Position numbers and translations under genes: made by a program. From Cornus controversa (taxonomy: Eukaryota > Streptophyta > Magnoliopsida > Cornales > Cornaceae), in the NCBI GenBank assembly GCA_026545225.1, contig CM048845.1:51064033-51128032 (forward strand): a stretch of 64,000 bases of DNA, written 5' to 3'. The first letter of the stretch is position 1, and the number at the start of each line of letters is the position of its first letter. The notes beneath the pieces are model-generated. The model saw only the letters and a list, made by a program, of their open reading frames with translations. It was not told the origin of the DNA and searched no databases. This document shows, one piece after another, positions 162-64,000 of this stretch.

Positions 162-1370
162 CTACTCGAGGGCGGGTGGTGGTGGTGGTGGCTCGGTGGG
201 AGCAGAAGTGGAGGTGGAGGCTCGACCTGCGAACAAGAACTGCAGATCCTGCCGGAAGGCTCGGAACTCATCTAAGATCGCTCTCTGGCCCTGCACCAGA
301 GAAGAAATGTCCGTCCGAATACCCGCCAGCTGACTCTGCGTCACCTGGACGTGCTCGTCAAAACCCTGCTGGAGCCGCTCTACGTCAGCCGCCAGGCAGG
401 AATAGCCTGTCGCTAAGATATCATGCCGCTCTGCAGCGACATCCATCTCCTCGTCCTCCATCTCAGCCCCTGCTGGCTCTCCCTCATCCATCTCCACCGG
501 GGCATCCATATCTACATCGTCTGGTGGATCACCCTGATGGTGCTGTCGCTCTAAGTGTCGCCTCACCCGATCCCACTGAGTAGATGTGAAGCGGGTGGGC
601 GGTGCCAACTGAACGTCAGTCCGACTGACTGGTATACTGGCACTGCTGAGAAAAGCGGCGATCAGGAATGGAAAGGGAAGATGCCAACTCGCTGCTCTCT
701 TCTTCCTCTTGTCGACAAGGCCATCCCAAACTTTGTGCATCTGCCCCCAGATAAGCGATGGGACAGAAAACCAAGTGCCCGTATGGAAAGCATAGAGGCA
801 ACGGAGGAGGTCGCCCCTGCGCTCTGCCACGTGCTGCAGCGGACACGCGTTCTTGAGGAGAACGGTGTCCAGGAACCAATATCTGCTCGGGCACATCGAT
901 TTGGACGTGCAGTTGCGACGGGGTGTGGTAAACTCCCCGCCACACATGTCCATCACCATCGAGAAGAGCGTAGTGTCGGCTGGGAGCGCGGCTCTATAAA
1001 GTGGCTGACCGTCCGGGCCAACCATATCCGTCGGCTGCTGGTGAGGAATGCCGAGCATATGAGCAATCCGGCTCGGCGTAATCGTGATCGTGACAGTGGC
1101 CACGGTAGTCTCGAGTGTATCTGGCGCTGTGCAGGAGTAGGTCATATGCTCGTAAAAGACCTGCACTAGGTGCTCATGTGCCACGTCTGTGGGAGGCACA
1201 CATAGCCGATCGAGGCGACGCCTCCTGAGCTCGGCAACCGTCCACTCGGTGTCGGGACGCCTCTCAAACTCGGCTAAGTCGAAAACCTGCTCCGGGTGGA
1301 ACTTCCGAGACCGGAAGGCTCGCCCGGGCACGTCACGAACAGCACCGGCGGCGTTCTTCACTCTTGCCAT
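162..1370 (-). CDS. Athila additional ORF (aORF), putative plant transposon protein
   Basis: About 402 aa from the ATG at 1370 (MARVKNAAG). A longer reading needs a TTG start and crosses a likely splice acceptor, so I reject it. It lies downstream of pol, where Athila elements carry their extra or env-like ORF. I see no signal peptide or membrane segment, so an envelope role is not supported. It resembles the family annotated as 'putative plant transposon protein'. Landmarks shared with the copia aORFs at 20388-21440 and 62982-64000 are an MAR[V/K] start, a block ending in (M/I)LG(I/V)P, a later LPFP...SIP block, and a C-terminal helical segment (FDEHVQ...). The C-terminus is acidic and then Ser/Thr/Pro-rich. 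Function is unknown. The ORF is open throughout. Confidence 0.75.
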   Translation of the reverse strand: MARVKNAAGAVRDVPGRAFRSRKFHPEQVFDLAEFERRPDTEWTVAELRRRRLDRLCVPPTDVAHEHLVQVFYEHMTYSCTAPDTLETTVATVTITITPSRIAHMLGIPHQQPTDMVGPDGQPLYRAALPADTTLFSMVMDMCGGEFTTPRRNCTSKSMCPSRYWFLDTVLLKNACPLQHVAERRGDLLRCLYAFHTGTWFSVPSLIWGQMHKVWDGLVDKRKKRAASWHLPFPFLIAAFLSSASIPVSRTDVQLAPPTRFTSTQWDRVRRHLERQHHQGDPPDDVDMDAPVEMDEGEPAGAEMEDEEMDVAAERHDILATGYSCLAADVERLQQGFDEHVQVTQSQLAGIRTDISSLVQGQRAILDEFRAFRQDLQFLFAGRASTSTSAPTEPPPPPPALE

Positions 1371-2052: not shown

Positions 2053-2433
2053 TTTCGATTGATCGAAATGTGCATTTCGATCAATCGAAATTTCGATTGA
2101 TCGAAATCTTGCTTCGATCAATCGAAACTAACTTCGATGGATCGAGATTGTCTCTTCGATCAATCGAACATTCCTTCCCTAAATCACATTTTTACTTCGA
2201 TCAATCGAACATTTAATTGATGCAATCGAACTTTTAGTTCGATCAATCGAAATCCAATTTCGATCAATCGAAAGTTTCGATCGACCAAAGACCTATCGAA
2301 GTGCAATCGAAGAATATCACCTCTCGGGACTTTGGACTTGGCAAATCTCTGCAATTTTTCGATCAATCGAAACCAAAATTTCGATCAATCAAAATTTTCG
2401 ATTGATCGAAATCTTGGTTTCGATCAATCGAAA
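2053..2433. repeat. Array of 16-bp dyad repeats TTTCGATYRATCGAAA upstream of the aORF
   Basis: I count about 13 good copies plus degenerate ones, starting at 2053, 2075, 2091, 2112, 2132, 2154, 2195, 2237, 2258, 2275, 2357, 2379, 2396 and 2418. Successive starts are mostly 20-22 bp or 16-17 bp apart, with some gaps of about 41-42 bp (two steps). Each unit is a near-perfect inverted repeat, and both orientations of the central TG/CA occur. The same motif recurs in this element's LTR and in the LTR at 54401-55766. Confidence 0.95.
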
Positions 2434-8237: not shown

Positions 8238-8472
8238 GCATTATCAATTGAACAACACCTCTATACACAAAAGTAACAAAAATATATACAAAAGAATGTG
8301 AATGAACTCAAACCACCAGTTTTTGAAGTTATACTCACAAAGGGTTCCAATTTGAATTCTTTTAGATGCCCGCAATGTGGTATACCTAAAATCAAGAAGT
8401 TTAAGATATAAGAACAAGAAATATATACAAAAAGAATGAAAGAATTTCTAGCCTAAGAATTAAACCAGATTT

Positions 8473-8492: not shown

Positions 8493-8498
8493 AAATTT

Positions 8499-9923
8499 TG
8501 ATGTGGTCGGAACTAAATTATATTGCAAGCTTAATTTTGCCCTTTTTATCAAAATATAATTTAACCACTCGCAAGAGCACGAATCTTTGCAGATAAGGTT
8601 CTATATAGAGGGTATCGATCCCACGAGGACTAGTCGTTAATTGTCATAGAGAAAGATTAATTCTACTTTAATTCAAACAAAACAGATTTTTGGTTTTGTG
8701 TTTAGAAACTATTGCATAAAGGAAATGACAATAAAATTAAAGAGTAAAGTTGGGAGAGAGAACTAGGGTTGGTTTCCACCCCTAGCCATTCACATGTTCA
8801 TAAGTGTAGCAAGCAAGGGATTCATTAATTAAATGCCTAACAATGACATTAGGCTTGTGACCTCAATGACATATCAAAAGATCAATGTGTGTGCTAACCT
8901 ATCATAATCCATCTTCAACAAGCATAGCTCTTCAACCTAACTAACTACCTACTTACTCTACTCTCTAAGTGAACACTACATGCATCCAAACTACCTTGTC
9001 TTGGCATGGTCTATACAAACTAGCATCACACATTCATTTAAACACCATTATCTAGCCATCATTTGCACTTCTTGTGGAATATGCAAATGTTGTGCATTCA
9101 AGTGACAAAACCTACTCTAAGACAAGAATAAATTCCAAATCAAATGAATATATAAAAGAAATGTATTTGTGTACATAATCACTAGGCTAAATAATCAACA
9201 TTTAATTACAAGTCCCAAGAGCTACAAAGATGAACAAGTTTACATGGCTAGGGGTTGAAACCAACACCCTAGTAGAAGAGTTAGTTGCTCATGGTTGCCT
9301 TGCACCCTTCCATTGATGAAGAGAATGAAGCTTCTTGGTCTGGTTCAGCCCTTCCTCTTCCTCTCCCGAAGGTCTCTCTCTTCTTCTTCCGATTTGTATG
9401 TGTTGAGAGATCTATGAGATATGTGGCTTTTGGTGCTTTTTGTATGCTTTTTGGCTCCTTTGGGCCCACCATATATATATATATATCATTATATATATCT
9501 CTTGTATCAAGAAGGCCCCCAAAAGTCTTGTTCAAGTCAGACAATCCCCTTAAGTCGTGCAAAAAGGGGGATTTTGTTGCAAGTGGGAGAGCAGGTGAGC
9601 AAGTGGCCAAGTGGGCTCTGCAGCATTTCGATTGATCGAAATTGCATTTCGATTGATCGAGATTTTGATCAATCGAAATGAGATTTCGATCAATCGAAAT
9701 TTCGATTGATCGAAATCCACATCTCGATTGATCGAAATGCCTTGGCAACAGTTTCTGATTTCATCTCTTGACTGCAGAAAGCTTCCAACTTTGCTCCATT
9801 TACTCCAATACCTGCAATACATCAAAAACACAAAAATACCGTAAACATATCTCGGTAAACGCAAAAACGGAACTAACATATGCAATAAAGAGGGTTCAAA
9901 TGCATAGAATTGAACACTTATCA
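8499..9923 (-). repeat. 5' LTR of the Athila element
   Basis: 1425 bp. On the minus strand it begins TGATAAGTGTTCAATTC and ends CCACATCA, with the primer-binding site 6 nt beyond. The LTR at 54401-55766 has the same termini and is alignable throughout. It contains a TA-rich stretch near 9470-9500 and a dyad array at 9626-9737. Confidence 0.92.
9626..9737. repeat. Dyad array TTTCGATYRATCGAAA inside the Athila LTR
   Basis: Six copies start at 9626, 9647, 9663, 9684, 9700 and 9722. The spacings 21, 16, 21, 16 and 22 bp make a 37-bp composite period. The motif is the one found upstream of the aORF at 2053-2433. Confidence 0.95.
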
Positions 9924-10133
9924 GTAAGGGCAAGGAAATTTTTGAGGAAGAAAAGAGTGTTTTGGCCGCTTTGGAAGAAAAACATGCTCAAGATTTGCTA
10001 AAAAGGAAGTCACTTGAGTGTCCTTCTGCAGCTGAAGGACAGAGCACTCCTGCTTAGAAAGTTGCCCAAATTTTTTCTTGTTTGGCTTCTTCTGCTTCCA
10101 ATCAGACCGTTGTTGTAATTACCGAAAAAATAT

Positions 10134-12749: not shown

Positions 12750-13601
12750 TGTTGAACCAAGGTTTCCAATCAAGGTTATCTCAATTATTTTAATGATAAC
12801 AAAACATTGTGAATGTTAGAATTTAATGTCTACTTGAGTTTGTGCTTAAACAGATTACGTTCTAACAAGACTCAAAGTAAGACAAGAGGATCAATGGCAC
12901 CTTGCAAAGGTATCTAAAGCTCACATTGATCATGTCCACCTATGTTAAAAAGCTCATATCAAGGACATGAGAAAAGGATGAAGGCAATAAGATCAAAGAA
13001 AGAAGACTTCACCCAATGCACATCAAGATCAATGAAGATATTGAAGATTAGGTAATTTAGTCTTGGTGAGTGTATAGGTAATCTTTGTAAAGTTACTTTG
13101 ATGTTCTCACTTGAAAGCTCTTGGACCAATGCATTTCATGCATATCATTCATAAGTCCTTAGACCATAAACAATAGGCCATGTACTTCATTTATATCTTT
13201 TAGAATGGTTTCTAGGAATTAGAGAAATAAGACTTTGAACTTATATGTTTAAATCATGAAAAGCCTTAAGTAATATTGAGAGGATCTCTAATTGGAAATA
13301 TATTTAATTCTCAATATTTGCATTTAGTGAAGTATAAAGTCAAGGACCTTGGATCAAATTGATTTATCTATAAAGGCCATAGTTGACTTTGAGGAGGTTC
13401 AAGTTTGTCAAAATATTCAAAGAACCTACCTCGTAACTTAGTTGACTATAGGACCCAATGCAACTCATGCATATCATTTTAATGGTGTCTAGAGATGTAA
13501 AAATAGGACTTGATCTTATTTGAATCATTTCTTAAAAGTCCTAGATGATTTAGGCTTTATTTGGATGTCAAAACTATGTTTTTCAATCTTCAGCTTGTAT
13601 C

Positions 13602-13914
13602 AGTCGACTTATGCAATCCCATTAGTCGACTAATAGAGATTGTGAGTTCTTGGCATTCCCAGAGGGACATATTAGTCGACTTATGAAAATGCATCAGTCG
13701 ACTTATGCCTTGAAATAATTTTTTTAAGAAATTTCTCACAGTCGACTATGCATCGTCTAACGTTGACAGAACTTTTTAGCCATTTATAGAGGGGTAAATT
13801 AGTTGACTTATAGAATTACATTAGTCGACTTATATTGGTTCAAAACTCATTTTTGCCTTGAAAAGACTCATCAGTCGACTACTGCTAAATGACCAGTCGA
13901 CTAACCAGTCGACT
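13602..13914. repeat. Array of AGTCGACT palindromes in the solo LTR
   Basis: Nine exact AGTCGACT copies start at 13602, 13624, 13674, 13696, 13740, 13823, 13873, 13895 and 13907, plus a degenerate AGTTGACT at 13801. Pairs are 22 bp apart (13602/13624, 13674/13696, 13801/13823, 13873/13895), and neighbouring pairs are offset by exactly 72 bp twice. The array lies about 90-400 bp upstream of the TATA box. Confidence 0.95.
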
Positions 13915-14000
13915 AACATTACAGGAACAGATCTGAAATGGCTAGTTTTTGTATTTAATTATTCCCAACCACTTCCAAACGGCTAGAATTCTTTCTTGGG

Positions 14001-14008
14001 CTATAAAT
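14001..14008 (+). promoter_or_regulatory. TATA box of the solo LTR
   Basis: CTATAAAT, followed about 35 bp later by 'acaagtgagagagacc', a plausible transcription start and leader. The AGTCGACT array lies just upstream. Confidence 0.55.
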
Positions 14009-15451
14009 ACACATTGTATATATATATTATACAAGTGAGAGAGACCACCAAACATATTGTTGATCATCCATTATTGGTTGAATCTATTATTAAGCTTAGA
14101 ATTCATATTCTATAGAAATAGTCACCACACTTGACCATATTCTTCCAAAGATCAATCTATTTATGGTATTTCATTCATCATTATAGAGTAGAGCTTTCTT
14201 ATTGATTCATCAAGTGTAACTCTAGATTTGAGAGAGCTTTGAATTTATATATCTTGTCTATTTGAGAGACACTCATTCTACACAAATTTCTTATTCTTGA
14301 GAGAAGAAGACCAAGAGGTTCTCTTGCCATGGGTAGCTTGAAGAAGCTTTGTAAGGGTTTTTCTCCAAGATCGAAAAAGAGAAAGGTTCATTCTCTACCT
14401 TAAAAGGAGAAGGATTGGGTAGTGCTCTCCACCCTTAAGAGTGAGCAATGGGTATCTCTTAACCGTTAAAAGAGGGAGGAAGCCCAAGTCATGAGCTTGG
14501 CAAAGAAGTCTTGGTGAGATTTTCATTGTGCAAGGAAGCCCAAGTAATTCACTTGACAATTGTATAGTTTGCTTTCCACTCTTAAGGAAGACTTTATAGT
14601 GGATACCTCAAGATGAGCTCTTGAGGCATGGACATAGGCCGGATGTGCCGAACCATATAAAAATCATGGTGTCAATGTTTGCATTTCTATATCCTTACTC
14701 TCTTTACATTATTATGTTCATTATATTTGTTAAATGTCTTTATGTTTTGAATAAATATCAAGAGCATAACTGTGTAGAGATATTGCACACCATGTATTTG
14801 ATGAAATATCTTTATGAGCTTTAATTTCATTTTTAGCATTGATAGACATATATCCACTTAACTCATTTCATTCCTTTTTTAATGAACCACTTTGTGAATG
14901 AATGAGTAGCACTCCAAGTGCTTGATTAATTGCCTATGTAAGTGTTACTTTCTATATCATATCGATAGGTAATTGTTCAAGTACCCTTTTGATAGGTTTA
15001 CTCCTTTATTTTTGCTACCATTTATTTTATAATTGTTTAGTTAATGAATGTTGTTTAAATGCTTCATATGAGGAGGATGGGATGAATGCTTGGAGTATAT
15101 TGGTTGAGTTGTGGAATTAATGAAATTGCTAATTGATTGAGTATTTGTTTGATTATCTTCTTGCCAATCAATTTGCATATCACGTGTTTGATAAAATGCG
15201 CTATCAACATTTTCATACACTTCAAGCGTGATATGTTATACTTACATGAACACGTCATTTGTTGTATTCACTAGATCATTTAAGTGCATAATAGATGGAG
15301 CATTCTCATTCCCACTTGTTGAATAAATAAGTTTATCAAGTGTTTGACAAAAGTCCTAACAAGCCTACTTTTGTCAAAATGAGCTAAACCGAAAAAGTTT
15401 CATCATTTGCCTATTGTCCCTATTCACCCCCCCCCTCTCTAGGGACAATTC

Positions 15452-16647
15452 TGTGACATATAAATTTGTAATTGGCATATTTTGGTGATCAAAACCTGAA
15501 TGATCGAGTTGTAAGTTTCATGATATTTTATGTAACCGATCATCGACATCTTCGAGCTGACACTCAAGTGCATAGAAGTCGACAAATCAGTTAGAACACC
15601 ATATAGTACAGGTAAGTATGGTGAGGACACTCTGCACTTTTTAGTTCCGAGCCTATTTTGAAAAACCAGGGGTTAAATGAAAAGTTTAGGGTTTTTCAAA
15701 GTAGGACCGGTCCCCAATATTTAGGACCGGTCCAACTTTTCTCGGTAAGATGGGTTCTGCAGGTTTTCAAAAAGTCCCACCGGTCCTATTTATTTGGCAC
15801 CGGTCCAACTTAGCCTATTCCAAATAGGAAATAAATTTTGACGAAAATTCTGATTCCTATTGGGTTTGAAACTTCTAGGAAAGTTCTATTTTGGTATTTA
15901 ACTTCTTTTCCAAGTAGAATTAGGACTTCCTTGCCTATATATATGTATCCATATTTTCTCTACAAGAGTGTGAAAAAGAAGCCCTGAAATATTAGTTTTA
16001 AAGAGAGAAAGTATATACATAATAATTAGGGTTTATATATTTTTAAGAACACACATCTATACTACACGAGTGATTTTTAGGATGGTGTTCTACTTCTGAT
16101 TAGCTGCTCAGAGACTGCATCAAATCTATTTGCTGATCAGAACATTGGATTGAAGGTTCTTCGCTTGCTTGCTTGCTGAGGAAGAAAGGTGACCAGATTG
16201 CACTACGAAGGGAACAAAATACTTGCTGAGTATTTTGGTTCTTCCAGCAATCTTTCTGTAAGGGTGGTGACGTTAGCCGGAAGTCTGCAGCAGTTGGACG
16301 TGTTGTCGCAATCATAAGCCTGAGGTGTTCCGCATCAGATCCTTGACAGAGTGAAGAGGGGTGTGAGACTGAGACAGAGTCTGTTGTACTTTGCTTCATC
16401 ATAGTGAATTGGTTCCCTGAGGCGTGCCGCCTCCCTCCGTGGTTTTTCCCACCTTGGGTTTCCACGTATATCTGGTGCATTCTTTTCTTTACTTGCACTT
16501 TACTTATTTGCTTGCTTTAATTGTTTAATTAATTGGACTTAAAATTGAATTAATTAAAAATTAAGCAAACGAGCAAGTGATCCTATTCACCCCCCCTCTA
16601 GGTTCTAAAATACTTTTCGCAACCGCTTCCGCACCGCGCAACTCACA
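15452..16647 (+). repeat. 5' LTR of the pol-less copia-type element
   Basis: 1196 bp, identical in length to the 3' LTR. The differences I see are at or near 15579 (T/C), 16251 (T/C) and 16450 (A/G). It contains four ACCGGT sites and a TATA-like TATATATATG near 15936. Confidence 0.95.
15706..15804. repeat. ACCGGT dyad array in the 5' LTR
   Basis: ACCGGT, mostly within GGACCGGTCC or CACCGGTCC, starts at 15706, 15726, 15779 and 15799: pairs 20 bp apart, with a pair-to-pair offset of 73 bp. The same four sites recur in the 3' LTR (22209-22307) and in reverse orientation in the related LTR at 62121-62219. Confidence 0.95.
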
Positions 16648-16649
16648 AT

Positions 16650-16661
16650 TGGTATCAGAGC
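16650..16661 (+). other. Primer-binding site (initiator tRNA-Met type)
   Basis: TGGTATCAGAGC begins 2 nt after the 5' LTR end (16647). It is the standard initiator-Met primer site of plant copia elements. Confidence 0.95.
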
Positions 16662-16738
16662 AGTGTTCTCTAATTTGTGAGTAGTTCCTTGCGAAGTATT
16701 TTTAAAATCAAAATTTATTTTTGTTTTCAAAAATTATC

Positions 16739-18799
16739 ATGGAATCTAGTATGAAAGAGGGTGGATCGATTCAGCGAACTCCTTTGTTTGATGGTTCAAA
16801 TTATACTTTCTGGAAGTCTCGCATGAAAGCCTTTTTAAAATCTCAAGGAGAGAGAGTTTGGATGGCTGTAGAGAATGGCTATAAAATTCCTACCATTACA
16901 ACTGGAGATGGTGATGTTGTTGTGACTGTAGAAAAGGATAAGGCAACATGGTCTAATGCTGAACATGAAGATGCAAATAATAACAACAAGGGTTTATATG
17001 CTATATTTAATTCTGTTGTTCCTTCTGAATTTGCTAGAATTTCTGCGTGTTCCACTTCGAAAGAAGCATGGGATATTCTACAGGTAACTCATGAGGGTAC
17101 CACCAAGGTAAGGAGATCTAAGCTACAAATGCTTGCCACTAAATTTGAAACAATTAGAATGGATGAAGATGAGATGTTTTCTGATTTTTATTCTAGGCTT
17201 AATGATATTGTTCAAAGTAGTGCTAACCTTGGAGAGAAAATTCCTTCTTTTCAGATTATTAGAAAAATCATGAGATCATTGCCTGATAGGTTCCAAGCTA
17301 AGTTGGAAGCCTTAGATGAAAGCAGAGATGTAGATTCTATGGAGGTGGCTGAGTTAGTTGGATCAATTCAAACTTTTGAGATGAAATATCCAAAGCTTCA
17401 GAAATAAAAAAATTTGGCTTTAAAAACATCAAAGACTTCAAAGTCTTCAAGTTTGTCAAATTGTTCAAATTCTTCAAAATCTGAAGTTGAAAAAATTGAA
17501 AGGTTTGAATATGATTCAGATAATGATGTTGCACTCCTTGCTAGAAAATTTAGAAAGATTCTTGAATATGAAAAAGGTAAAAATTTGAGAAAAGGAAATC
17601 CTTCTAAATTCCGGAATCAAAGCTCATCATCCAAAGGTAAGGAAAGGAAAGAGAAAGAAGAGGACTCTAAGGAAATTGAGGTTACATGTTGGACATGTGG
17701 TGGTAAAGGACACACATCTAATCAATGTCCAAGTCCTAAGAAAAATAGCTTTAGTGCAAAGAAAATTTCAAACAAGAAAGTTATGAAAGCTATTATTTCT
17801 GAGTCTGAATCTTCTAACTCTGATAGTGATTCTTCTGTTGAAAATGATTCTTTGGCTTTTGTTGCTTTATTGAATGATGATACTGCTAATGATTCTTCTT
17901 CTGATGTAGGTGAAACAGAGATGTACACTACTCTCAGTCAAGTAGGGTCTGACGATTCAGAAGTTGAGCAGTCTGATGAAGAACCATGTGAAAGCAAGCT
18001 GCCAGAACTTTTTGAGAAATTGCTGGAAGCTTATAATAAAAAATCTGAGAAGCTGAAGCAAGAAAAATCTGAGAAAGAGACATTGAAGAAAAAGAATGAA
18101 GATCAAGTGAAGTTGATTGAAGAAAGTAAAGTTGAAATTCTGAATCTTCAAGGCAAAGTCAAGTTTCTCGAAAGCGAGGTAAGTCAAGCTATTTCTGCTA
18201 AAGATGTTCTTATTGCTAGAATTAATTTTCTTGAGTCTGAATTGAGAAAATCACAAGAGAAATTAATTGCTTTTACTTCTAGGCAGATTAAGCTTGATAG
18301 CATGATTAGTGTTGGTAAGCCTGTAGGAGATAAAACTGGATTAGGTTTTGTTGGGTCATCGTCTAAGGGAAAAACTATTTTTGTTAAACCCAAGAATTTG
18401 ATTGTGTCAGAACCCAAACCTAAGTCTCAAGTTGAGTCTGTGCATGCTAATGTTGTGTCCAATGTGCTTTATTGTTCTTTTTGTGATAAGAATGGACATA
18501 GTCAACACTATTGCTATAAAAAGAGAAGACATTCTAATTCTAATTTTTATGTGCATAATTCTTTTGCTAAGAATAGGGTTCATGCTAAAAAGCCACATTA
18601 TTGGAACAAACCCAAAAATTCTCAAGGTAAAAAGAATTCAAATAAAAAGAAGAATGTTTTTGTTTCTCCACAAGTATTTTCTGATAAATTGCATGTTAAA
18701 ACCATCTGGATGAAAAAGGAAGATTTGGAGAAGTTTGTGCCTGTTGATACTATGGGATTTATTCCTAATAGGTCTTTGGGTGCAAAACCCCCTAACTAA
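16739..18799 (+). pseudogene. gag: copia-type gag with one in-frame stop
   Basis: Starts at the ATG at 16739 (MESSMKEGGSIQRTPLFDG). The first 220 residues hold the plant copia gag domain (FDGSNYTFWKSRMKAFL, AWDILQ, VRRSKLQML, DFYSRLNDIV). A TAA at 17405-17407 interrupts the frame, and the same frame then stays open to 18799. The second part has a zinc knuckle (CWTCGGKGHTSNQC), an acidic Ser-rich stretch, a long Lys/Glu-rich coiled coil, and a second knuckle (CSFCDKNGHSQHYC). Two knuckles separated by a coiled coil fit the long gag of SIRE/Maximus-like elements. The ORF stops before any protease. Since the LTRs are nearly identical, the TAA is either very recent or present in the mobilised source. 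Confidence 0.85.
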
Positions 18800-19947
18800 G
18801 TCTTTGAGGACTTTGATGGTCATGGATTGAGCTTCTGTTCATTATTTGTTTTCCATTGGACCAGGTTTTTTTTTGGTTAGGTTTTGTTTATTTTTAGTAA
18901 TAATCATATGAGATTATGATAATTATATTTTTCTGAGAAATGATGTGATTTCCTTATATTTCTTTTTAATTTCACTTTAATTTGTGAATGCATAATTGGG
19001 ACACTCAGCTTGTCAATGAATGAAGTACTTGATTTTATGATCTAAACATTGATGACCAATATGCTTTATTTATTTCTTTTTAGAGGTAAATCTTCTGAGT
19101 CCATACAATTTGTGCACTAGTCCAACTCTGAGAGAATTGATTGAAAACTAATGTGAAGTTGACTAGAATATATTGTATGAGTACCATTAAAGCTTAAATG
19201 ATCAATGAAAAAAATGAAAAAAAAATTATATATGTTTTTATTCAGCATGAAAAGAAAAAGAAAATAGGAAATTTGCTGAATATCTAAGACAAAAGGAAAA
19301 GGCTACCTTCGGGATGTGTTCGTAGCTTCCACTACAATGTAAATCTCCAATGAGATATCTTTAAAAATTTAAAGAGTTGTTTTGAGGAAAATAGCTGGCT
19401 GCCCGTAAGAGTGAAAGCCACCGTCTTAGAAAAAGAAAAAAAAACATGATGAATGAAAAATAAATGATGGATCTTGTGGAGTTATATTTGCTTATTATCC
19501 AATATGTTTTAGATGATGAATCAAAGGAATTTGATTAATTTTTGATGAAGTTGGATTGCACACACACACATGGATTTATTAGATGAATTTCTAAATTTTT
19601 ATAAATATTTGTGTGTTGGAAGTTGTGTCATGATCATGAATTTGAGAATGAATTTTAAAGACAATCTATGGGTTTTAAAATTCTGCATTTATAAATAATT
19701 GAAATTGTTCAGAAATTTTAGAACTCATGTTATTCTCTGAAAAATGTGTTTTGATTATTCTCATGAGATTATTCATGTTTAGTATTTTTTTTCTCTTGAA
19801 AAATTTCAAAAAATTCAAAAATATATTTATTTTGATTTTGTGTTTATTTTTCACTCTTTTGTGCTAAATTGCTAAATCAGATTGAAAAGATGTGTTTTTG
19901 GTGAATTAAAGGTCCAAAGTGTAATTTTTCATAATTCACAAAGTTGG
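18800..19947 (+). other. Non-coding interior where pol is missing
   Basis: About 1.1 kb of AT-rich sequence with no open frame and no RT, integrase or RNase H motif. 19300-19440 ('ggctaccttcgggatgtgttcgtagcttcc', 'gagtgaaagccaccgtc') looks like non-coding retrotransposon sequence rather than decayed pol. I see no pol scar. Confidence 0.6.
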
Positions 19948-20094
19948 ACCGGTCCCCATTATTGAGCACCGGTCGCACTTCTGCAGGTTCTGAGGAACAG
20001 AAAGAAGTTGGACCGGTCCCCAAATATGAGGACCGGTCGCACTTAGCGAATGCCCAGAATGTTGATTCTGCGCGCGCGCGTTTTGGCTTAAAAT
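19948..20094 (+). promoter_or_regulatory. Second ACCGGT array and promoter-like region upstream of the aORF
   Basis: ACCGGT starts at 19948, 19968, 20012 and 20032: pairs 20 bp apart with a 64-bp pair offset. Surrounding words (GGACCGGTCCCCA, CTGCAGGTT) match the LTR array, so this looks like a partial copy of the LTR control region. A CG run (20071-20080), a weak TATA-like TTAAAAT (20088-20094) and a C/T-rich leader follow before the aORF ATG at 20388. Promoter function is inferred from position. Confidence 0.5.
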
Positions 20095-20387
20095 CCCTCA
20101 TTCACTCTCACAAGCACACACACTCATATCTCACTCTCTCTCAAACTCTCTTAAAAACACTCCAACTCACACACATTTCTCTTCATCTAAATTTCTTTGT
20201 GATTGATTGATATTGGAGGTTGGGATTGAACTTTTGGAGTTTGGGTTGATTGAGTATTGATTTGGGAGAAATTGTGCAAATAAATTGTTTTGAAAATTGA
20301 GGTTTAAAGACTTGCACACAAAGTGTTCGACAAAAAGTCTCAATGGAACTCTTGTCTATATTTTTGATCCCATTCATTGTGGTATTA

Positions 20388-21440
20388 ATGGCACGCAAAC
20401 GGGGACGAAATGATGCGTCCACAAGTGCAGATAATCGAATTGTGTTTACTAGAAACATGTTTGAAGATGATTTTAACTACAACACTTTCATAAACATCAT
20501 TGGATGTCGAGCTATGAGGATATAAAGGAAAGTGAATCTTGTGGCGATTAAACAAGAATGGGAATTGGATTTTGTGCAATATTTTGAGGATAATGGTTGG
20601 GAGTCTCTATGTGATCTTCGGGAGATTGTCAAGCCGGACATGGTTCGATATTTCTATGGTAATATCATTACATCGAGCCTGGATGACCTCACTTTTGTGA
20701 CCAAATGTTATGGTGTTCGGGTTGAGGTTACCAAGGATATAATTGCCAATATCTTGGGAGTCCCAGAGATTGAAAATGGCTTAGTTTTGCCATATCAAAT
20801 TGAGGATCCAAACCGACCAACCATGGATGACATGATTAGGGAGTTATGCATACCCAATGCCCCTAGACTTGTTGATAGGTTGCCTTCACTTTATATCACA
20901 CACAATGTGTCGGCATAAAATTTGGTGGTCTCCTACAACCTTGATCCTCATGATCATAAAGGTAATTTGATCAAGAGTCGAGCCGAGCTACTATATCATA
21001 TTGTTCGAGAGGATCCCATCAATCTTCCTGCAACAATCATGCGTACCATGATTCTAGCTACTCGACACTCTAGGTCATCATCAGCCTTACCCTTCCCACA
21101 GATTATCATGGCTATTCTGAGAGGTGCAAGGGTTTCTATTCCTGATGGAGCAGATGTTGAAAGACCGAAAGGGATAATTGATGCTACCTCAATTACTCGT
21201 TCAGTCAACAAGAAAGAGAAGGATAGGAAAGCTTATGAGCTCAGTCAAGGAGCTGGTCAGGCTGTGTCTGGGGGTCGTGGAGTTTTCCAACTTCCTGCTA
21301 CTGACACACCTGTGACGGCCAATCAGATGAACCAAGTTCTCAGGTTCATTCAGCAAGGGTTCGATCGTTTACATACTAGGATAGACAAGCTTGACCCTAC
21401 TGCTTCTGATGAGGCTGCTGATGATGCAGATGATGATTAG
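20388..21440 (+). pseudogene. aORF of the copia-type element, two in-frame stops
   Basis: Starts MARKRGRNDASTSADN at 20388. Frame-preserving stops occur at 20523-20525 and 20916-20918. Otherwise the 350-codon frame is open to TAG at 21438-21440. It is closely related to the aORF at 62982-64000, which has neither stop in the part visible. Blocks shared with the Athila aORF (162-1370) are FYG...DDL...EVTKDIIANILGVPE, ALPFPQIIMAILRGARVSIP, and a C-terminal helix (FIQQGFDRLHTRIDKLD). It fits the 'putative plant transposon protein' family. There is no membrane segment, and function is unknown. Confidence 0.8.
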
Positions 21441-21645
21441 ACTTTAGGTCTTAATATATTTTTGTTCTAGACTATGGTTGATTTCTTTATCTTTGATGTC
21501 TAGATTATTTATTTTGGTTTATTCCATCAACAGATATGTTTTGGATATTTATTTGATCAGTGATGATGATTATGTTTGTCTCTATGTGCTTCATGATTTA
21601 TCTGTTTATCTAAATCTCTTTGCTAGTTCTTTGTCAATTTGTTCC

Positions 21646-21956: not shown

Positions 21957-23152
21957 TGTGACATATAAATTTGTAATTGGCATATTTTGGTGATCAAAAC
22001 CTGAATGATCGAGTTGTAAGTTTCATGATATTTTATGTAACCGATCATCGACATCTTCGAGCTGACACTCAAGTGCATAGAAGCCGACAAATCAGTTAGA
22101 ACACCATATAGTACAGGTAAGTATGGTGAGGACACTCTGCACTTTTTAGTTCCGAGCCTATTTTGAAAAACCAGGGGTTAAATGAAAAGTTTAGGGTTTT
22201 TCAAAGTAGGACCGGTCCCCAATATTTAGGACCGGTCCAACTTTTCTCGGTAAGATGGGTTCTGCAGGTTTTCAAAAAGTCCCACCGGTCCTATTTATTT
22301 GGCACCGGTCCAACTTAGCCTATTCCAAATAGGAAATAAATTTTGACGAAAATTCTGATTCCTATTGGGTTTGAAACTTCTAGGAAAGTTCTATTTTGGT
22401 ATTTAACTTCTTTTCCAAGTAGAATTAGGACTTCCTTGCCTATATATATGTATCCATATTTTCTCTACAAGAGTGTGAAAAAGAAGCCCTGAAATATTAG
22501 TTTTAAAGAGAGAAAGTATATACATAATAATTAGGGTTTATATATTTTTAAGAACACACATCTATACTACACGAGTGATTTTTAGGATGGTGTTCTACTT
22601 CTGATTAGCTGCTCAGAGACTGCATCAAATCTATTTGCTGATCAGAACATTGGATTGAAGGTTCTTCGCTTGCTTGCTTGCTGAGGAAGAAAGGTGACCA
22701 GATTGCACTACGAAGGGAACAAAATACTTGCTGAGTATTTTGGTTCTTCCAGCAACCTTTCTGTAAGGGTGGTGACGTTAGCCGGAAGTCTGCAGCAGTT
22801 GGACGTGTTGTCGCAATCATAAGCCTGAGGTGTTCCGCATCAGATCCTTGACAGAGTGAAGAGGGGTGTGAGACTGAGACAGAGTCTGTTGTACTTTGCT
22901 TCATCATAGTGAATTGGTTCCCTGAGGCGTGCCGCCTCCCTCCGTGGTTTTTCCCGCCTTGGGTTTCCACGTATATCTGGTGCATTCTTTTCTTTACTTG
23001 CACTTTACTTATTTGCTTGCTTTAATTGTTTAATTAATTGGACTTAAAATTGAATTAATTAAAAATTAAGCAAACGAGCAAGTGATCCTATTCACCCCCC
23101 CTCTAGGTTCTAAAATACTTTTCGCAACCGCTTCCGCACCGCGCAACTCACA
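21957..23152 (+). repeat. 3' LTR of the pol-less copia-type element
   Basis: 1196 bp, nearly identical to 15452-16647, with ACCGGT sites at 22209-22307. It is followed directly by the target duplication AATTC. Confidence 0.95.
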
Positions 23153-40970: not shown

Positions 40971-43900
40971 TGTCACGCCCCGGTTCCCGAGGCCCGGAAA
41001 CTGAGGTGTGAACCCCGTGAAATCACCCTCACGACATAACCTCCACCTGATCATACAATTCAATTTCCTATTATTTTTACGAAAATCGGGCATGACCCAT
41101 TCTAAATAATCAGCTCCTGGCATATTACACCTGCTTTACAATTCATATGGACACTTCTGGGCACGTGTCCCCCCAGCATTTATATCTAACAATAAATATG
41201 GACACTTCTGGGCCCGTGTCCCCCCAATATTTCTACAACATGCATAAACAATTATAAATATACATGCCTCAGTCCTTGAATATCCGTATTAAATACATAC
41301 ATCACATGAATAAATACAGCTGAAGGAACTGAATCTACGTAATCGCCTCATACATTTAATCCAAATGTAATACCTCTATCTATCCAAAATCCTGAACATA
41401 AATTAGATTCTAAGGAATCTAATTACTACCTCTGTAACTGGTGCTATCAGTTTCCCCAACTGACTCCAAAACCAGCAACACCTGCAAAACCTGGGAGGGG
41501 GTGAGCTCAAAGGCCCAACAAGGTATGTAGAACCATACTATCACTGCTGCAGCAGGTCGATCCTCACATATTCTCAAAAATATACTTATGCACTTAAATA
41601 TATCACAATATTTAAGACCATGCCCCACCTAGCATGCATGAACTAATGATGTATATGGCTACTCTAGCACATATGAACATACAAAATCCAATACACATGA
41701 TTTTAGAAATCATTCTCAACATGCTTGAAAGCAGTAAACATTCAGCACCAATATGTATAAAGAACATATATGTCTATTTACATAAAACAATGTAAATCAA
41801 TCACCACATCTCCTACTCATCAAGTAGCAATCTCAAATGCAATGAAGATGCATTTAAACCATATAACATGCTCAAAAGCAAAAGATATCCAACATATATC
41901 ATGTTCTGTCACAAGCAACGCATATATATGAATGCGTTTAACACGTAGCATTCCTCACAATGGATAATGTAAGCAATCTCACACACTTGTCTCTCTCTCG
42001 GACTCAACCCGATATCCTAACATGATTCTTAACCAATCATGTGACCGAGACACTTCAGACACAATTGCGGAACCCATCACCGAGTATTCTCTACTCCGAG
42101 GTGATTGAACCGCTGTCGAATCTGCCACCGAGTATTCTCTACTCCGAGGTGATCGGACCGCTTCAAAATATGTCACCGAGTATTCTCTACTCCGAGGTGA
42201 TTAGATCATTTTCGAATTCGTCACCGAGTATTCTCTACTCCGAGGTGATCGAACCATCACCGAGTATGCTCTACTCCGAGGTGATTAGATAAATTTTAGA
42301 ATTTTGTCACCGAGTATTCTCTACTCCAAGGTGACTCAACCACTCCAACGCCCTCACCGAGTATTGACCTACTCTAGGCAACTCAACCACTCTTCCCCGT
42401 CTCCTCACAACGGGCCCATATATGCATTTCGAACATATAATAACTAAACATTTCAATGTTCATGCCTCACAATGCCTAAGCTAGTTAAAAGTACATAGCA
42501 TGCATTTCATCTCCACATAAACCCACCTATAACCATATATGTGTCATTTCCCTCCTATACATGCAATATGGATGCATATATACACAGCATAATGTTTTCA
42601 TGCATCAACCCATGCTTATGAATACTAAAAAGAAGCATCTAGCATGCTTTTTCTCACATTCCAACACATATAGCACATATATGTTCAAAACCTGCATAAT
42701 ACCTCATATATGCAAACAACTCCAACTTAGCACATTTTTATCATGCTATGACCAATGCATATATTCGATATATAAAGACAGTATACCTTTAACTCACATA
42801 AGCCCACATATAATCACGTATATGTCAAATCATGCATATACATTACATATGCACATATACTAGCATAAATACAGTCATGCTCTCATTCAATGCATGTATT
42901 CACTACAAGTAACTAACATGCATTCCAATCACAATATATATACACATATATATTACATCACCCACGTATGTATCAAGAACATATAAAACACTTAGCACAT
43001 TTCATGCTTTTCAAATGTTCACCAAAGGTTATACCCAACTTAGCATGCATTTCTACCACCGCAACTATATATATAACCACCTATATATATATACTGAACC
43101 TCATGCATAAGAGCCACATATGCATACAAGACAACACATAGTCAAACGTGCATTATTTAGCATACTTTTCATAGACTTTAATCTATACATACGTGCATAT
43201 CACAATGCAAAAAGGCGATAAATTTAACATGTTATCGCTCCCCAACCCACACATATATACATATATACACATATATATACACATACATTCTCTCACATCC
43301 CATGTATATACCGCGTCCCCCTATACACATATATATATAAGCGCCTACATATATATGTATATACACATCACATATGATCAAATTAATAACATATGTAAAT
43401 TACTCAACGTACGTAAAAGATATGTACGAGATAGAGGCAAGATTCAACTTGCCTTAGGTCCAGCTTTCGCCAGGTCTGCGCTTGCAAAGCGATCCTTGTT
43501 CCATGTCCGGTCCGGTCCAGTCCTGTGTCAAAACCCACCCGAACAATCCATCGGGTTACTTCACTTTCTTTTTTTTTTTATTTCCATGTTTGGATCAACC
43601 CAATTCACAAACTATCTTCAGTTCACACCCACACCTAGCACCAGCCACCTCAACCGTGACCACTCCCATACCATTCACAAACTATACCCGAAACCACCTC
43701 GAGCCAAAGCTGAACCATCATCATCCGTAAATATATATATATATATATATATATCTTCTGCCAAATGCCCACTGTCCAAGCCGTGAGCTCCACCCATGCT
43801 CACCATGAAACCAGCCTCAGCCGCACCATCAACCCGCAAACCAACCACCACCATGATCGGACCCTTGCCAACGAGCAAAAGTCACCCAAACTCAACTGTA

Positions 43901-47466: not shown

Positions 47467-47468
47467 TT

Positions 47469-54400: not shown

Positions 54401-55766
54401 TGATAAGTGTTCAATTCTATGCATTTGAACCCTCTTTATTGCATATGTTAATTCTATTTTTGCGTTTACCGAGATATGTTTATGGTATTTTTGTGTTTTT
54501 GATGTATTGGAGGTATTAGAGTAAATGGAGCAAAGTTTGAAGCTATTTGCAGCTGAAGAGAAAAAGTCAGAATTACAGCCAAAGGCATCTTGATCAATCG
54601 AGATTTTGATCTTGATCAATCGAGATCTCGATTGATCGAGATCTCATTTCGATTGATCAAAATCTCGATCAATCTCGATTGATCGAGATTCTGCAGAACC
54701 CACTTGGCCACTTGCTCACCTGCTCTCCCACTTGCAACAAAATCCCCCTTTTTGCACGACTTAGGGGGATTGTCTGACTTGAACAAGACCCTTGGGGACC
54801 TTCTTGATACAAGGGATATATATATTGATATATATATATATATGGTGGGCCCCAAGGTTGAAAAGGAAGCCAAAAAGCACACAAAAAGGGCCATATCTCT
54901 CATATCTCACATATCTCTCAAGATACATCAGACCATCCAAGGAGAGACCTTCGGGAGAGGAAGAAGAGGAGCTGAACCAGACCAAGAAGCTTCACTTTCT
55001 TCATCAATAGAAGGGTGCAAGGCTGCCATGACCAACTAGCCACACCTAGCCATGTAAACTTGTTCATTTTTGTAGCACTTGGGGATTTGTAGTTAAATGT
55101 TGATTATTTAGCCTAGTGAATATGTACACAAATACATTTCTTATATATATTCATTTGATTTGGAATTTATTCTTGTCTTAGAGTAGATTTTGTCACTTGA
55201 ATGGACAACATTTGCATATTCCACAAGAAGTGCAAATGATGGCTAGATAATGGTGTTTAAATGAATGTGTGATGTTTGCTTGTATAGACCATGCCAAAAC
55301 AAGGTAGTTTGGATGCATGTAGGGTTCACCTAGAGAGTAGGGTAATTAGGTAGTTAGTTAGGTTGAAGAGCTATGCTTGTTGAAGATGGATTATGATAGG
55401 TTAGCACACACATTGATCTTTTGATATATCATTGAGGTCACAAGCCTAATGACATTGTTAGCCACTTAATTAATGAATCCCATGCTTGCTACACTTATGA
55501 ACATGTGAATGGCTAGTGGTGGAAACCAACCCTAGTTCTCTCTCCCAACGTTACTCTTTAATTTTATTGTCATTTCATTCATGCAATAGTTTATAATCCA
55601 AAATTCAAAAACCTGTTTTTAGGATTAAAGTAGAATTAATCTTTCTTTAAGACAAGTGCAACTAGTCCTCGTAGGATCGATACCCTCTATATAGAACCTT
55701 ATCTATAAAGATTCGTGCTCTTGCGAAAAATTAAGCTTACAATTTAATCCGAGTTTAGCCACATCA
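54401..55766 (+). repeat. 3' LTR of the second Athila element
   Basis: 1366 bp, TGATAAGTG...CCACATCA, alignable over its length with 9923-8499. It carries a dyad array (54588-54688) and a TA-rich segment at 54818-54843. Confidence 0.92.
54588..54688. repeat. Dyad array in the second Athila LTR
   Basis: Copies of [T/C]T[T/C]TGATYRATCGARA-type start near 54588, 54610, 54626, 54647, 54663 and 54673: spacings 22, 16, 21, 16 and 10 bp, matching the first Athila LTR. Confidence 0.9.
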
Positions 55767-55974
55767 ACTCTTTTGCATAATGAATAAGAGAGTCCTTGCC
55801 CAATAAAAAGTCCATCAACACCTATCTTCAATCTCTGCAAATTAGTTGGTCATTACAAGAAGAGTCCTACACCTTTAGAAACTTATCACTACCTAACTAA
55901 CTCCATCTATCTTCAAATACACACTTATTTCAAATATGTTGCATGTAGGGGCTAAATTATCACCCGGTCCAATG

Positions 55975-61297: not shown

Positions 61298-62471
61298 TGT
61301 GAGTTGCGCGGTGCGGAAGCGGTTGCGAAAAGTATTTTAGAACCTAGAGGGGGGTGAATAGGATCACTTGCTCGTTTGCTTAATTTTTAATTAATTCAAT
61401 TTTAAGTTCAATTAATCAAACAATTAAAGCAAACAATAAATAAAGTGCAAGTAAAGAAAATAATGCACCAGATATACGTGGAAACCCAAGGCGGGAAAAA
61501 CCATGGAGGGAGGCAGCACGCCTCAGGGAACCAATTCACTATGATGAAGCAAAGTACAACAGACTCTGTCTCAGTCTCACACCCCTCTTCACTCTGTCAA
61601 GGATCTGATGCGGAACACCTCAGCCTTATGATTCCGACAACACGTCCAACTGTTGCAGACTTCCGGCTAACGTCACCACCCTTACAGAAAGGTTGCTGGA
61701 AGAACCAAAATACTCAGCAAGTATTTTGTTCCCTTCGTAGTGCAATCTGGTTACCTTTCTTCCTCAGCAAGCAAGCGAAGAACCTTCAATCCAATGTTCT
61801 GATTAGCAAATCAATTTGATGCAGTCTCTGAGCAGCTAATCAGAAGTAGAAAACCATCCTAAATATCACTCGTGAGGTATGGATGTGTGTTCTAAAAATA
61901 TAAAGCCCTAATTATACTGTATATATTTTCTCTCTAAAAATCTTATTTCAGGGCCTCTTTTGTAGAGAAAATATGAATACATATATATAGGCAAGGAAGT
62001 CCTAATTCTACTTGGAAAAGAAGTTGAATACCAAAATAGAACTTTCCTAGAAGTTTCAAACCCAATAGGAATCAGAATTTCCGTCAAAATCTATTTCCTA
62101 TTTGGAACAGGCTAAGTTGGACCGGTGCCAAATTATCAGGACCGGTGGGACTTTTTGAAAACTTACAGAAACCATCTTACCTAGAAAAGTTGGACCGGTC
62201 CTAAATATTGGGGACCGGTCCTACTTTGAAAAACCCTAAACTTTTTATTTAAACCCTGGTTTTTCAAAATAGGCTCGGAACTAAAAAGTGCAGAGTGTCC
62301 TCACCATAGTTACCTATACTATGGTGTTCTAACTGATTTATCGGCTTCCATGCACTTGAGTGTCAGTTCGAAGTTGTCGATGATCGGTTACATAAAATAA
62401 CATGAAACTTACAACTCGATCATTCAGGTTTTGATCACCGAAATATGCCAATTACAAATTTATATGTCATA
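61298..62471 (-). repeat. 3' LTR of the second copia-type element
   Basis: Reverse complement of the 15452-16647 family; ends ACTCACA at 61298. The four ACCGGT sites (62121, 62141, 62194, 62214) keep the 20-bp and 73-bp spacings. Confidence 0.93.
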
Positions 62472-62981: not shown

Positions 62982-64000
62982 CTAGTCAGCCTCATCAGCA
63001 GACTCATCAGAAGCAGTAGGGTCAAGCTTGTCTATCCTAGCATGTAAACGATCGAACCCTTGCTGAATGAACCTGAGAACTTGGTTCATCTGATTGGCCG
63101 TCACAGGTGTGTCAGTAGCAGGAAGTTGGAAAACTCCACGACCCCCAGACACAGCCTGACCAGCTCCTTGACTGAGCTCATAGGCCTTTCTGTCCTTCTC
63201 CTTCTTGTTTACCGAGCGAGTAATTGATGTGGCATCAATCATCCCTTTCGGTTTCTCAATATCAGCTCTCTCTGGAATACGAACCCTAGCATCCCTCAAA
63301 ATAGCCATCACTATCTGTGGAAAAGGTAATACTGATGAAGACCTAGAATGTCGAGTGGCTAAGATCATGGTACGCATGATTGTTGCGGGAAGATTGATCG
63401 GATCTCCTCGAACAATGTGATAGAGAATCTCAGCTTGACTCTTAATCAAATTACCCTTGTGGTCATGAGGATCTAAATTGTATGAGACTATCAAATTCAA
63501 TGCTGAGACCTCATCGGTAATGTAGAGTGAAGGCAACCTATCTACTAGCCGTGGGGCTTCGGGTATACACAACTCTCTAATCATATCATCCATGCTCGGT
63601 TTGTTTGGATCCTCAACTTGATATGGCAATACAATGCCATCTTCATTCTCTGCAATACCTAACATATTGGCAATTTTGTCCTTGGTGACCTCAACACGAA
63701 TACCATAACATTTAGTCACAAACATTAGGTCGTCCAAGCTTGATGTAATCATATTTCCATAAAAATATCGGACCATGTCGGGCTTTACAATTTCTCTAAG
63801 ATCACAAAGAGACTCCCAACCATTATCTTCAAAGTATTGCACAAAATCCATCTCCCATTTGCGCTTGATTATTGCAAGATTGACTCGCCTTACAATCCTC
63901 ATAGCCCGGCACCCTATGATATTCACAAAATTATTGAAATTGAACTCATCTTCAAACATGTCTAATGTGAATATAATTCGATTCTCATCACTGGTAGACG
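62982..64000 (-). CDS. aORF of the second copia-type element, 5' end off the window
   Basis: At least 339 codons, open to the right edge. Upstream of the internal Met at 63959 the frame continues in homology with the copy at 20388 (STSDENRIIFTLD versus STSADNRIVFTRN), so that Met is not the start. It has no stops where the 20388 copy has two. Landmarks: DMVRYFYGNM, EVTKDKIANMLGI, VLPFPQIVMAILRDARVRIP, and C-terminal FIQQGFDRLHARIDKLD. Putative plant transposon protein family; function unknown. The intact frame in an older-looking element suggests the ORF was maintained while the family was active. Confidence 0.82.
   Translation of the reverse strand, partial: STSDENRIIFTLDMFEDEFNFNNFVNIIGCRAMRIVRRVNLAIIKRKWEMDFVQYFEDNGWESLCDLREIVKPDMVRYFYGNMITSSLDDLMFVTKCYGIRVEVTKDKIANMLGIAENEDGIVLPYQVEDPNKPSMDDMIRELCIPEAPRLVDRLPSLYITDEVSALNLIVSYNLDPHDHKGNLIKSQAEILYHIVRGDPINLPATIMRTMILATRHSRSSSVLPFPQIVMAILRDARVRIPERADIEKPKGMIDATSITRSVNKKEKDRKAYELSQGAGQAVSGGRGVFQLPATDTPVTANQMNQVLRFIQQGFDRLHARIDKLDPTASDESADEAD

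What the first reader, a model, noticed from the sequence alone, without database searches (positions are those of the whole stretch)
13602..15804. Unrelated LTR families share a dyad-array architecture with common spacing
Three families here use different palindromes, yet their sites are paired at 20-22 bp and the pairs repeat at 72-74 bp. AGTCGACT (solo LTR): pair spacing 22, pair offset 72. ACCGGT (copia): pair spacing 20, offset 73. TTTCGATYRATCGAAA (Athila LTR): spacings 21 and 16, so 37 per pair and 74 per two pairs. The LARD has a fourth array, of hairpins at about 48 bp. Every motif contains CG, which normally decays quickly in methylated plant transposons. Spacing near two helical turns suggests dimeric proteins bound on one DNA face, or a nucleosome or silencing interaction. 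The palindrome would be the variable part and the spacing rule the conserved part. I do not know this described as a general feature.
Basis: seen in the sequence. Interest (0 to 1): 0.9.

Follow-up and report, generated by a model that had tools for sequence, protein, structure and literature searches.

The report
Palindrome arrays before retrotransposon promoters
Several plant jumping genes carry short mirror-image DNA motifs, spaced about two turns of the double helix apart, before the likely promoter in their ends and again before an extra gene; such motifs were known in one group, and finding them in a second group with a related extra gene suggests that the extra gene's protein may recognise them.

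Summary
The arrays are real. AGTCGACT has 22-bp pairs with 72-bp offset, ACCGGT 20/73, and the Athila motif alternates 21/16. The 20-23 bp spacing reappears in other families of the same genome, including GATCGATC at 23/49/23 and F2 at 20/21/21. The 72-74 bp offset is not general: the internal ACCGGT array of the same element has 64, and Athila, F2 and LARD do not follow it. Palindromic motifs of this kind, before the LTR TATA box and before ENV, were described for Sireviruses in 2010, so the core finding is not new. What appears new: Athila (gypsy) elements have the same layout, and in both superfamilies the second array lies before a gene of one protein family, Transposase_32. All 12 such genes whose upstream side could be read in the sampled 364 kb, in three families, carry an array. 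My best reading is cis-regulatory binding arrays for a symmetric factor; that the factor is the element's own Transposase_32 protein, as VANC is for VANDAL transposons, is an inference, not shown. New variant of a known kind.

The parts
13602..13914 (+). AGTCGACT array in a Sirevirus-like copia LTR (about 12750-15446): four 22-bp pairs (first site of the third is AGTTGACT) plus single sites; TATAAA 87 bp after the last site
15452..16647 (+). 5' LTR of copia element 1 (Sirevirus-like; target site copy AATTC)
15704..15806 (+). GGACCGGTCC array in the 5' LTR: 20, 53, 20; TATATA 129 bp downstream
16706..18799 (+). gag of copia element 1 (Retrotran_gag_2, zinc knuckle); no long pol frame seen after it, so the element is probably non-autonomous
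19946..20039 (+). second, internal GGACCGGTCC array of the same element: 20, 44, 20, upstream of a weak TTAAAA box and the extra ORF
20301..21440 (+). extra ORF of copia element 1, Transposase_32 (PF20167), broken in this copy
22209..22311 (+). same array in the 3' LTR (LTR 21957-23152, 99.7% identical to the 5' LTR)
62119..62221 (-). same array in an LTR of a second copia copy (61299-62469)
62982..63998 (-). extra ORF of the second copia copy, Transposase_32, E 8.6e-24; its internal array lies beyond the window (L035:394-487)
8498..9926 (-). 5' LTR of Athila element 1 (starts TGATAAG; gag-pol 2604-8240 follows on the - strand)
9626..9737 (-). Athila LTR array TTTCGATYRATCGAAA: 21, 16, 21, 16, 22; TATATA 128 bp downstream
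2053..2433 (-). internal Athila array, 14 sites, between pol and the extra ORF; weak TTTAAA box 34 bp downstream
165..1370 (-). extra ORF of Athila element 1 (402 aa from its first M), weak Transposase_32 match (8.5e-9, 36 bits, under the curated cut-off of 45)
54401..55769 (+). second Athila LTR with diverged array (54588-54688), several sites with both arms changed to TCTCGAT..ATCGAGA
42077..42380 (-). LARD LTR array of TCACCGAGTATTCTCTACTCCGAGGTGA hairpins at 48, 48, 48, 36, 50; same in the other LTR (48575-48872)

Best explanation
The arrays are cis-regulatory (operator or enhancer-like) arrays of LTR retrotransposons, read by a symmetric, dimeric DNA-binding factor. Each family has its own palindrome. 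In two families with an extra gene (copia-ACCGGT and Athila-1) the same motif is used twice: in the LTR before the promoter that drives gag-pol, and before the extra gene, which probably has its own promoter. In a third (L044) only the array before the extra gene was seen. The basic spacing of 20-23 bp, about two helical turns, would let neighbouring dimers contact each other. Arrays grow, shrink and change by copying whole units, so palindromes within an array change together. Shown here: the arrays, the double use with the same motif, unit gain and loss, and the tie to Transposase_32 genes. Supported but not proven: a place before promoters. Inferred: binding, a dimer, an effect on transcription. 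Inferred more weakly (about 0.3): the factor is the element's own Transposase_32 protein.
For: LTR and internal arrays share the motif within copia-ACCGGT and within Athila-1, and motifs differ between families. 12 of 12 Transposase_32 ORFs whose upstream side was readable in 364 kb have an array (3 families; 3 ORF pieces without a 5' part not testable). A TATAAA/TATATA-type box lies within 150 bp after the array in 10 of 19 arrays tested, that is 5 of 6 LTR kinds and 1 of 3 internal kinds; random places have one in 21%, LTR places in 16-44%. Basic spacing is 20-23 bp in 7 of 8 array families against 20 of 126 background tandem arrays. Athila outer arm letters: C..G 60, T..A 84, C..A 30, T..G 11, other 3, of 188 sites. 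Units move whole: an LTR array with one extra 37-bp unit (L042), one lacking a unit (L036), an internal copia array with a single 20-bp pair (L040). CpG kept 159 of 169 inside Athila LTR arrays against 162 of 199 outside, 15 copies.
Against: No binding, methylation or expression data. With weak boxes (TTTAAA, TTAAAA, TATAC) counted, all 19 arrays have a box within 209 bp, but so do 52% of random places; the internal copia and Athila boxes are only of this weak kind. Relatedness of copies inflates the arm and CpG counts. Array identity is no higher than that of the rest of the LTR (0.949 against 0.945; 0.881 against 0.906 and 0.932 against 0.958), so there is no plain sign of purifying selection. 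The copia LTR arrays are hardly CpG-enriched (0.77 against 0.63; 0.69 against 0.65). No GATCGATC array was found in an LTR for the L044 element. Athila's 16-bp spacing is out of helical phase and LARD uses 48 bp. The F2 motif is only an imperfect dyad in direct repeats.
Confidence: 0.55

Rival explanations
1. Element-encoded self-recognition: the Transposase_32 protein of each family binds its own palindrome and activates or un-silences its own LTR and its own gene, as VANC proteins do for VANDAL transposons. Palindrome and protein co-evolve, while the spacing is fixed by the protein's assembly.
For: Array and extra gene go together in two superfamilies (12 of 12 readable cases, 3 families). 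The extra ORFs of copia and Athila are homologous (BLASTP E 7e-7; all 8 proteins scanned match PF20167). C-terminal heptad pattern, no strong membrane segment (crude scores). Motif private to each family. An Athila-like element without a Transposase_32 hit (L033) shows no array in its 3.7 kb after pol. Athila LTR and internal variants tend to agree per element (Pearson 0.71, p 0.12; Spearman 0.55, p 0.26; n 6). VANC targets are likewise short motifs in expanding tandem repeats in noncoding parts (passages of PMC5735166).
Against: No binding shown. LARD and F2 have arrays but tblastn found no Transposase_32 in them, so they would need a helper. No DUF1985 or DUF287 match as in VANC. L058 copia against L044 is only E 0.019. 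The protein's fold could not be predicted (pLDDT 33.5).
Confidence: 0.32
2. Host transcription factors (stress, hormone or cell-cycle) bind the arrays; families have captured different host sites, and spacing reflects ordinary cooperative binding.
For: U3 repeat enhancers bound by host factors are the usual case in plant elements (recalled; passages of PMC10760457 cite such arrays). Bousios 2010 mainly recovered stress-factor sites when comparing Sirevirus motifs with a plant database, but no common factor.
Against: The same motif is repeated before the element's own extra gene in two families; motifs differ widely between families in one host.
Confidence: 0.35
3. Neutral amplify-and-decay: slippage and gene conversion multiply a short unit; palindromes are by-products and the spacing is the slippage unit.
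For: Spacers within AGTCGACT pairs (three of four) and within ACCGGT pairs are similar, so pairs are duplicates. Arrays gain and lose units. Identity inside arrays is not raised.
Against: It does not explain palindromes in family after family, the match between LTR and internal arrays, or the 20-23 bp mode (0 of 22 background arrays with 2.8 or more copies).
Confidence: 0.18
4. RNA hairpins or silencing bait: the palindromes act as structured RNA that feeds small-RNA silencing.
For: Maize Sirevirus palindromes are small-RNA hotspots (Bousios 2016, not held; seen through passages of PMC5311732 and PMC10760457). The LARD hairpins could fold (not computed).
Against: Perfect 8-10 bp palindromes should make poor RNA hairpins (judgement, not computed). 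This would be a cost to the element rather than a reason to keep the arrays.
Confidence: 0.12

Closest known systems
Palindromic repeated motifs (RM boxes) of Sirevirus copia elements, Bousios et al. 2010 (PMC2829016)
   Same: Palindrome differing between elements, clustered upstream of the LTR TATA box, CG-containing, with extra copies before the ENV gene only in elements that have one
   Different: They call it Sirevirus-specific and give no spacing rule in the parts read (passages; sections 9, 10, 19, 20); ENV is not proposed as the binder there. Here also in Athila (gypsy), with a homologous extra gene and 20-23 bp spacing
VANC anti-silencing proteins and their tandem motifs in VANDAL DNA transposons (PMC5735166, PMC10398659; passages read)
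   Same: Family-specific short motifs in tandem arrays in noncoding DNA, expanding and contracting, motif differing between related families
   Different: DNA transposons; protein has DUF1985/DUF287, not Transposase_32; motifs of VANC21 and VANC6 are not palindromes; binding and loss of methylation are proven there and not here
Athila extra ORF with Transposase_32 in active sunflower elements (PMC11728184; passages read)
   Same: Same protein family in the same place (3' side, sense strand), predicted nuclear
   Different: No link to palindromes or to copia elements in the passages read
U3 repeat enhancers of plant retrotransposons such as Tnt1 and Tto1 (recalled)
   Same: Repeated, sometimes symmetric, motifs upstream of the TATA box
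   Different: As far as I recall, not shown to be shared with an internal promoter

Membership tests
Sirevirus (copia element 1, 15452-23152) | PBS TATCAGAGC next to the 5' LTR | tested here: met
   TATCAGAGC at 16653
Sirevirus (copia element 1, 15452-23152) | several polypurine tract copies before the 3' LTR, AT/TG attachment site | tested here: met
   purine runs ending GGGGGAGA at 21646, 21702, 21722, 21945; the last is followed by T and the TG of the LTR; the published octamer's letters were not seen
Sirevirus (copia element 1, 15452-23152) | inverted repeat around the PPT/3' LTR junction | tested here: met
   TTGCCAA ... TTGGCA, read by eye
Sirevirus (copia element 1, 15452-23152) | polyC-rich signal | tested here: met
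   ATTCACCCCCCCTCTAGG at 16585; the published signal's letters were not seen, so the match is by description and recall
Sirevirus (copia element 1, 15452-23152) | palindromic repeated motif with CGG-CCG core, at least 8 copies | tested here: inconclusive
   4 in the 3' LTR plus 4 internal copies, palindromic with CG, but core is CCGG; one of the 13 published motifs also lacks the core
Sirevirus (copia element 1, 15452-23152) | pol phylogeny | not testable with these tools
   no long pol frame seen in the element
VANC-type anti-silencing system | family-specific short motif in tandem arrays in noncoding DNA, unit gain and loss | tested here: met
VANC-type anti-silencing system | encoded protein with DUF1985 or DUF287 | tested here: not met
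   8 of 8 proteins match Transposase_32; DUF1985 and DUF287 are not among the five families listed at E up to 10 (HMMER's filters lose most matches above 0.1)
VANC-type anti-silencing system | protein binds the motif and removes methylation | not testable with these tools
   no binding or methylation data
Transposase_32 (PF20167) | score over the curated cut-off (45 bits), copia extra ORFs | tested here: met
   83-85 bits in three copies; the two pieces of the broken copia 1 ORF give 34.6 and 42.6
Transposase_32 (PF20167) | score over the curated cut-off (45 bits), Athila and L044 extra ORFs | tested here: inconclusive
   36 and 27.4 bits (Athila), 41.7 bits (L044): clear E-values (8.5e-9, 3.6e-6, 1.5e-10) but under the cut-off

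The most novel reading that the evidence does not exclude
A single family of retrotransposon accessory proteins (Transposase_32), shared by copia Sireviruses and gypsy Athila elements, is a set of sequence-specific self-recognition factors. Each binds its own private palindrome, in pairs two helical turns apart, before its own gene and in its LTR, and protects or activates its own family, the retrotransposon counterpart of VANC. The 'env-like' genes of Sireviruses with such motifs would then be transcription or anti-silencing factors, not envelopes.
Probability: 0.3. Interest if true: 0.85.

Novelty: new variant of a known kind. Interest (0 to 1): 0.55.

Why it matters
The job of extra genes between pol and the 3' LTR is an open question: the 2020 review (PMC7264820, parts 1 and 2 of 3 read) calls the role of sense, 'env-like' ORFs unclear and that of antisense ORFs unknown. 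If arrays and extra genes form lock-and-key pairs, each family names its own predicted binding site, and the question becomes a simple binding test. It would also show that sequence-specific self-recognition by transposons arose in retrotransposons as well as in DNA transposons, and give private DNA-protein pairs for plant research.

Tried and rejected
Rejected: the 72-74 bp offset as a law; a common face of the helix for Athila; an RNA hairpin reading for the short palindromes; the repeat pairs of L039, L041 and L046-L048 as LTR pairs (L039 looks coding; the others were not resolved); the polyC match of L048 as an LTR end. Three more polyC matches (L038, L042, L056) were not resolved. L040 is a mixed locus (ACCGGT-type extra ORF, then LTR sequence like the AGTCGACT family) and that LTR appears to lack its upstream part.

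Limits: families L054 and L049 have motifs like the AGTCGACT and Athila families, so only GATCGATC and F2 are new motifs. Counts over copies are not independent. In the background, arrays overlapping the known ones and units over 90% A+T were dropped. In one search, 15 LTR copies that include the array and the stretch after it were kept and 14 partial or internal hits left out.
Full report
What was checked. The window is plant DNA (judged from its elements), part of contig 1 of a 771.7 Mb genome. I verified each array, found the elements they belong to, then read 300 kb more of the same contig, giving 364 kb in all, to test the claims on other copies and other families.

Anatomy in the window. 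AGTCGACT lies in a copia-like LTR (about 12750-15446) beside whose end copia element 1 has inserted (15452-23152, target site copy AATTC). Element 1 has gag but no long pol frame that I could see, and carries GGACCGGTCC arrays in both LTRs and a third one inside (19946-20039). Downstream of the internal array is an extra ORF that matches Transposase_32 (PF20167; the homologous ORF of copy 2 at 62982-63998 scores 8.6e-24). Athila element 1 on the minus strand (LTR 9926-8498, gag-pol 8240-2604) has one array in the LTR and a longer one (14 sites, 2053-2433) between pol and its own extra ORF (1370-165), a weak Transposase_32 match (8.5e-9, under the cut-off). The copia and Athila extra ORFs are related to each other (25% identity over 204 columns, E 7e-7 for one comparison).

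Same layout in other copies. In the 364 kb, Transposase_32-like ORFs with readable upstream DNA number 12: four of copia type (window 20421; window 63995 with L035; L040; L058), seven of Athila-1 type (window, L036, L042, L043, L050, L051, L052) and one of another Athila-like family (L044, 407 aa, 41.7 bits). All 12 have an array upstream; in L051 only three sites remain and in L040 one pair. Three more ORF pieces (window 52156, L041, L059) lack their 5' part and could not be tested. These are three families, not twelve independent cases. The L044 array uses GATCGATC with spacings 23, 49, 23, 39 bp before TATAAA; no LTR array of that motif was found in the sample. As a contrast, contigs in two bacterial drafts (L033/L034), which I take to be plant contamination, hold an Athila-like gag-pol without a Transposase_32 hit; the 3.7 kb after pol shows no palindrome array, but no LTR pair is on the contig. 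This is one case.

Spacing. Basic spacings are: ACCGGT 20; AGTCGACT 22; Athila 21-22 alternating with 16-17; GATCGATC 23; F2 (LTR pair L057 8846 / L056 3085, motif GCGCANNTGCCACTTT, an imperfect dyad in direct repeats) 20, 21, 21; L054 20; L049 22 (22, 89, 22, 24, 22); LARD 48. Seven of eight fall in 20-23. Among 126 other tandem arrays of period 12-60 in the same DNA, 20 do, and 0 of the 22 with 2.8 or more copies do. This is post hoc and should be read as such. The 72-74 bp offset holds for AGTCGACT, for ACCGGT LTRs and for GATCGATC, but not for internal ACCGGT (64 in three copies, a single pair in L040), Athila (37), F2, L049 or LARD. Residuals from a 10.5-bp helix are within 2 bp for the pair spacings of ACCGGT, AGTCGACT, GATCGATC and F2, but 5 bp for Athila's 16 and 4.5 for LARD's 48.

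Evolution of the arrays. Spacers inside pairs are similar, so pairs are copies of a pair, and whole units are gained or lost (L042 one more 37-bp unit, L036 one fewer; L040 one pair). Outer letters of the Athila palindrome mostly match on both arms: 144 of 188 sites symmetric, 41 mixed, 3 other (20 plus 8 of 40 distinct sequences are symmetric). CpG is kept in 159 of 169 cells inside Athila LTR arrays and in 162 of 199 outside over 15 copies (Fisher 3e-4, cells not independent). On single pairs of LTRs it was 8 of 10 against 8 of 15 for Athila and 4 of 5 against 22 of 26 for copia, so copia shows no difference. CpG observed/expected is much higher in the array than in the rest for the AGTCGACT LTR (1.04 against 0.20) and Athila LTRs (3.42 against 0.28; 2.36 against 0.23), partly by construction because the motif holds CG, and little higher in copia LTRs. 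Overall identity inside arrays is not higher than outside. This fits concerted change with symmetry kept, not strict conservation.

Position. A TATAAA/TATATA-type box lies within 150 bp after the array in 10 of 19 arrays: in five of six LTR kinds (AGTCGACT, ACCGGT, Athila, F2, LARD; L054 has it at 209 bp) and in one of three internal kinds (L044). With weak boxes all 19 arrays have one within 209 bp, but 52% of random places do too, so the internal promoters of copia and Athila rest mainly on the ORF that follows.

What is known. Bousios et al. 2010 (PMC2829016; passages and sections 9, 10, 19, 20 read) described palindromic repeated motifs in 13 Sireviruses, upstream of the LTR TATA box, forming CpG islands in most of them, with further copies before ENV only in ENV-bearing elements, and argued for an internal ENV promoter. 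That is the copia half of this finding. Maize Sirevirus palindromes are also small-RNA hotspots (Bousios 2016, not held; seen through passages of PMC5311732 and PMC10760457). Transposase_32 in Athila was noted in sunflower (PMC11728184, passages). A 2019 survey names other extra-ORF domains in Ogre, Retand and Athila (PMC6317226, one passage). VANC proteins of VANDAL transposons bind short motifs in tandem arrays and undo silencing (PMC5735166, PMC10398659, passages). Searches for Transposase_32/PF20167, VANC21, Athila with palindromic, Sirevirus palindromes with siRNA, Athila ORF1 names and env-like with palindromic listed no paper whose title or shown start of abstract joins the palindromes, Athila and this protein; most listed papers were not opened, and five other searches timed out, so this is weak evidence of absence.

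Reading. I hold the arrays to be binding sites for a symmetric factor (0.55). Whether the factor is the host's or the element's own Transposase_32 protein is open; the repeated pairing of private palindrome and Transposase_32 gene in two superfamilies makes the second reading the most interesting one that the data allow (0.3). Structure prediction failed and no binding or methylation data were at hand.

Noticed in passing
L033 and L034 (NZ_QPKJ02000021.1, NZ_JABGCL010000066.1): Two bacterial draft assemblies from different genera hold contigs, 99.6% identical over 9.0 kb, with a plant-type Athila gag-pol: probably plant contamination.
   Followed up: partly
G000 genome: PF20167 search scored 150 matches of 4447 first-look candidates, all 150 over the cut-off: Transposase_32 genes seem very abundant in this plant.
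   Followed up: partly
window 31907-32197: 39/78-bp array of GCGACAAA...TTTGTCGC inverted motifs, perhaps subterminal repeats of a DNA transposon.
   Followed up: no
L042 7099-7443 and L054 6156-6291: Tandem arrays of 67-69 bp units with a gapped palindrome ATACC-N6-GGTAT, not tied to an LTR promoter here.
   Followed up: no
L040 506-3150: An ACCGGT-type extra ORF is followed by LTR sequence like that of the AGTCGACT family: recombinant or nested copy.
   Followed up: partly
window 40969-44819 and 47467-51319: LARD with 3.85-kb LTRs, 99.8% identical, PBS TGGTATCAGAGC on the minus strand, so a recent insertion in reverse orientation.
   Followed up: partly
L049 1206-1398: Decayed TTCGATTAATCGAA array with 22-bp pairs, whose element was not identified.
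   Followed up: no
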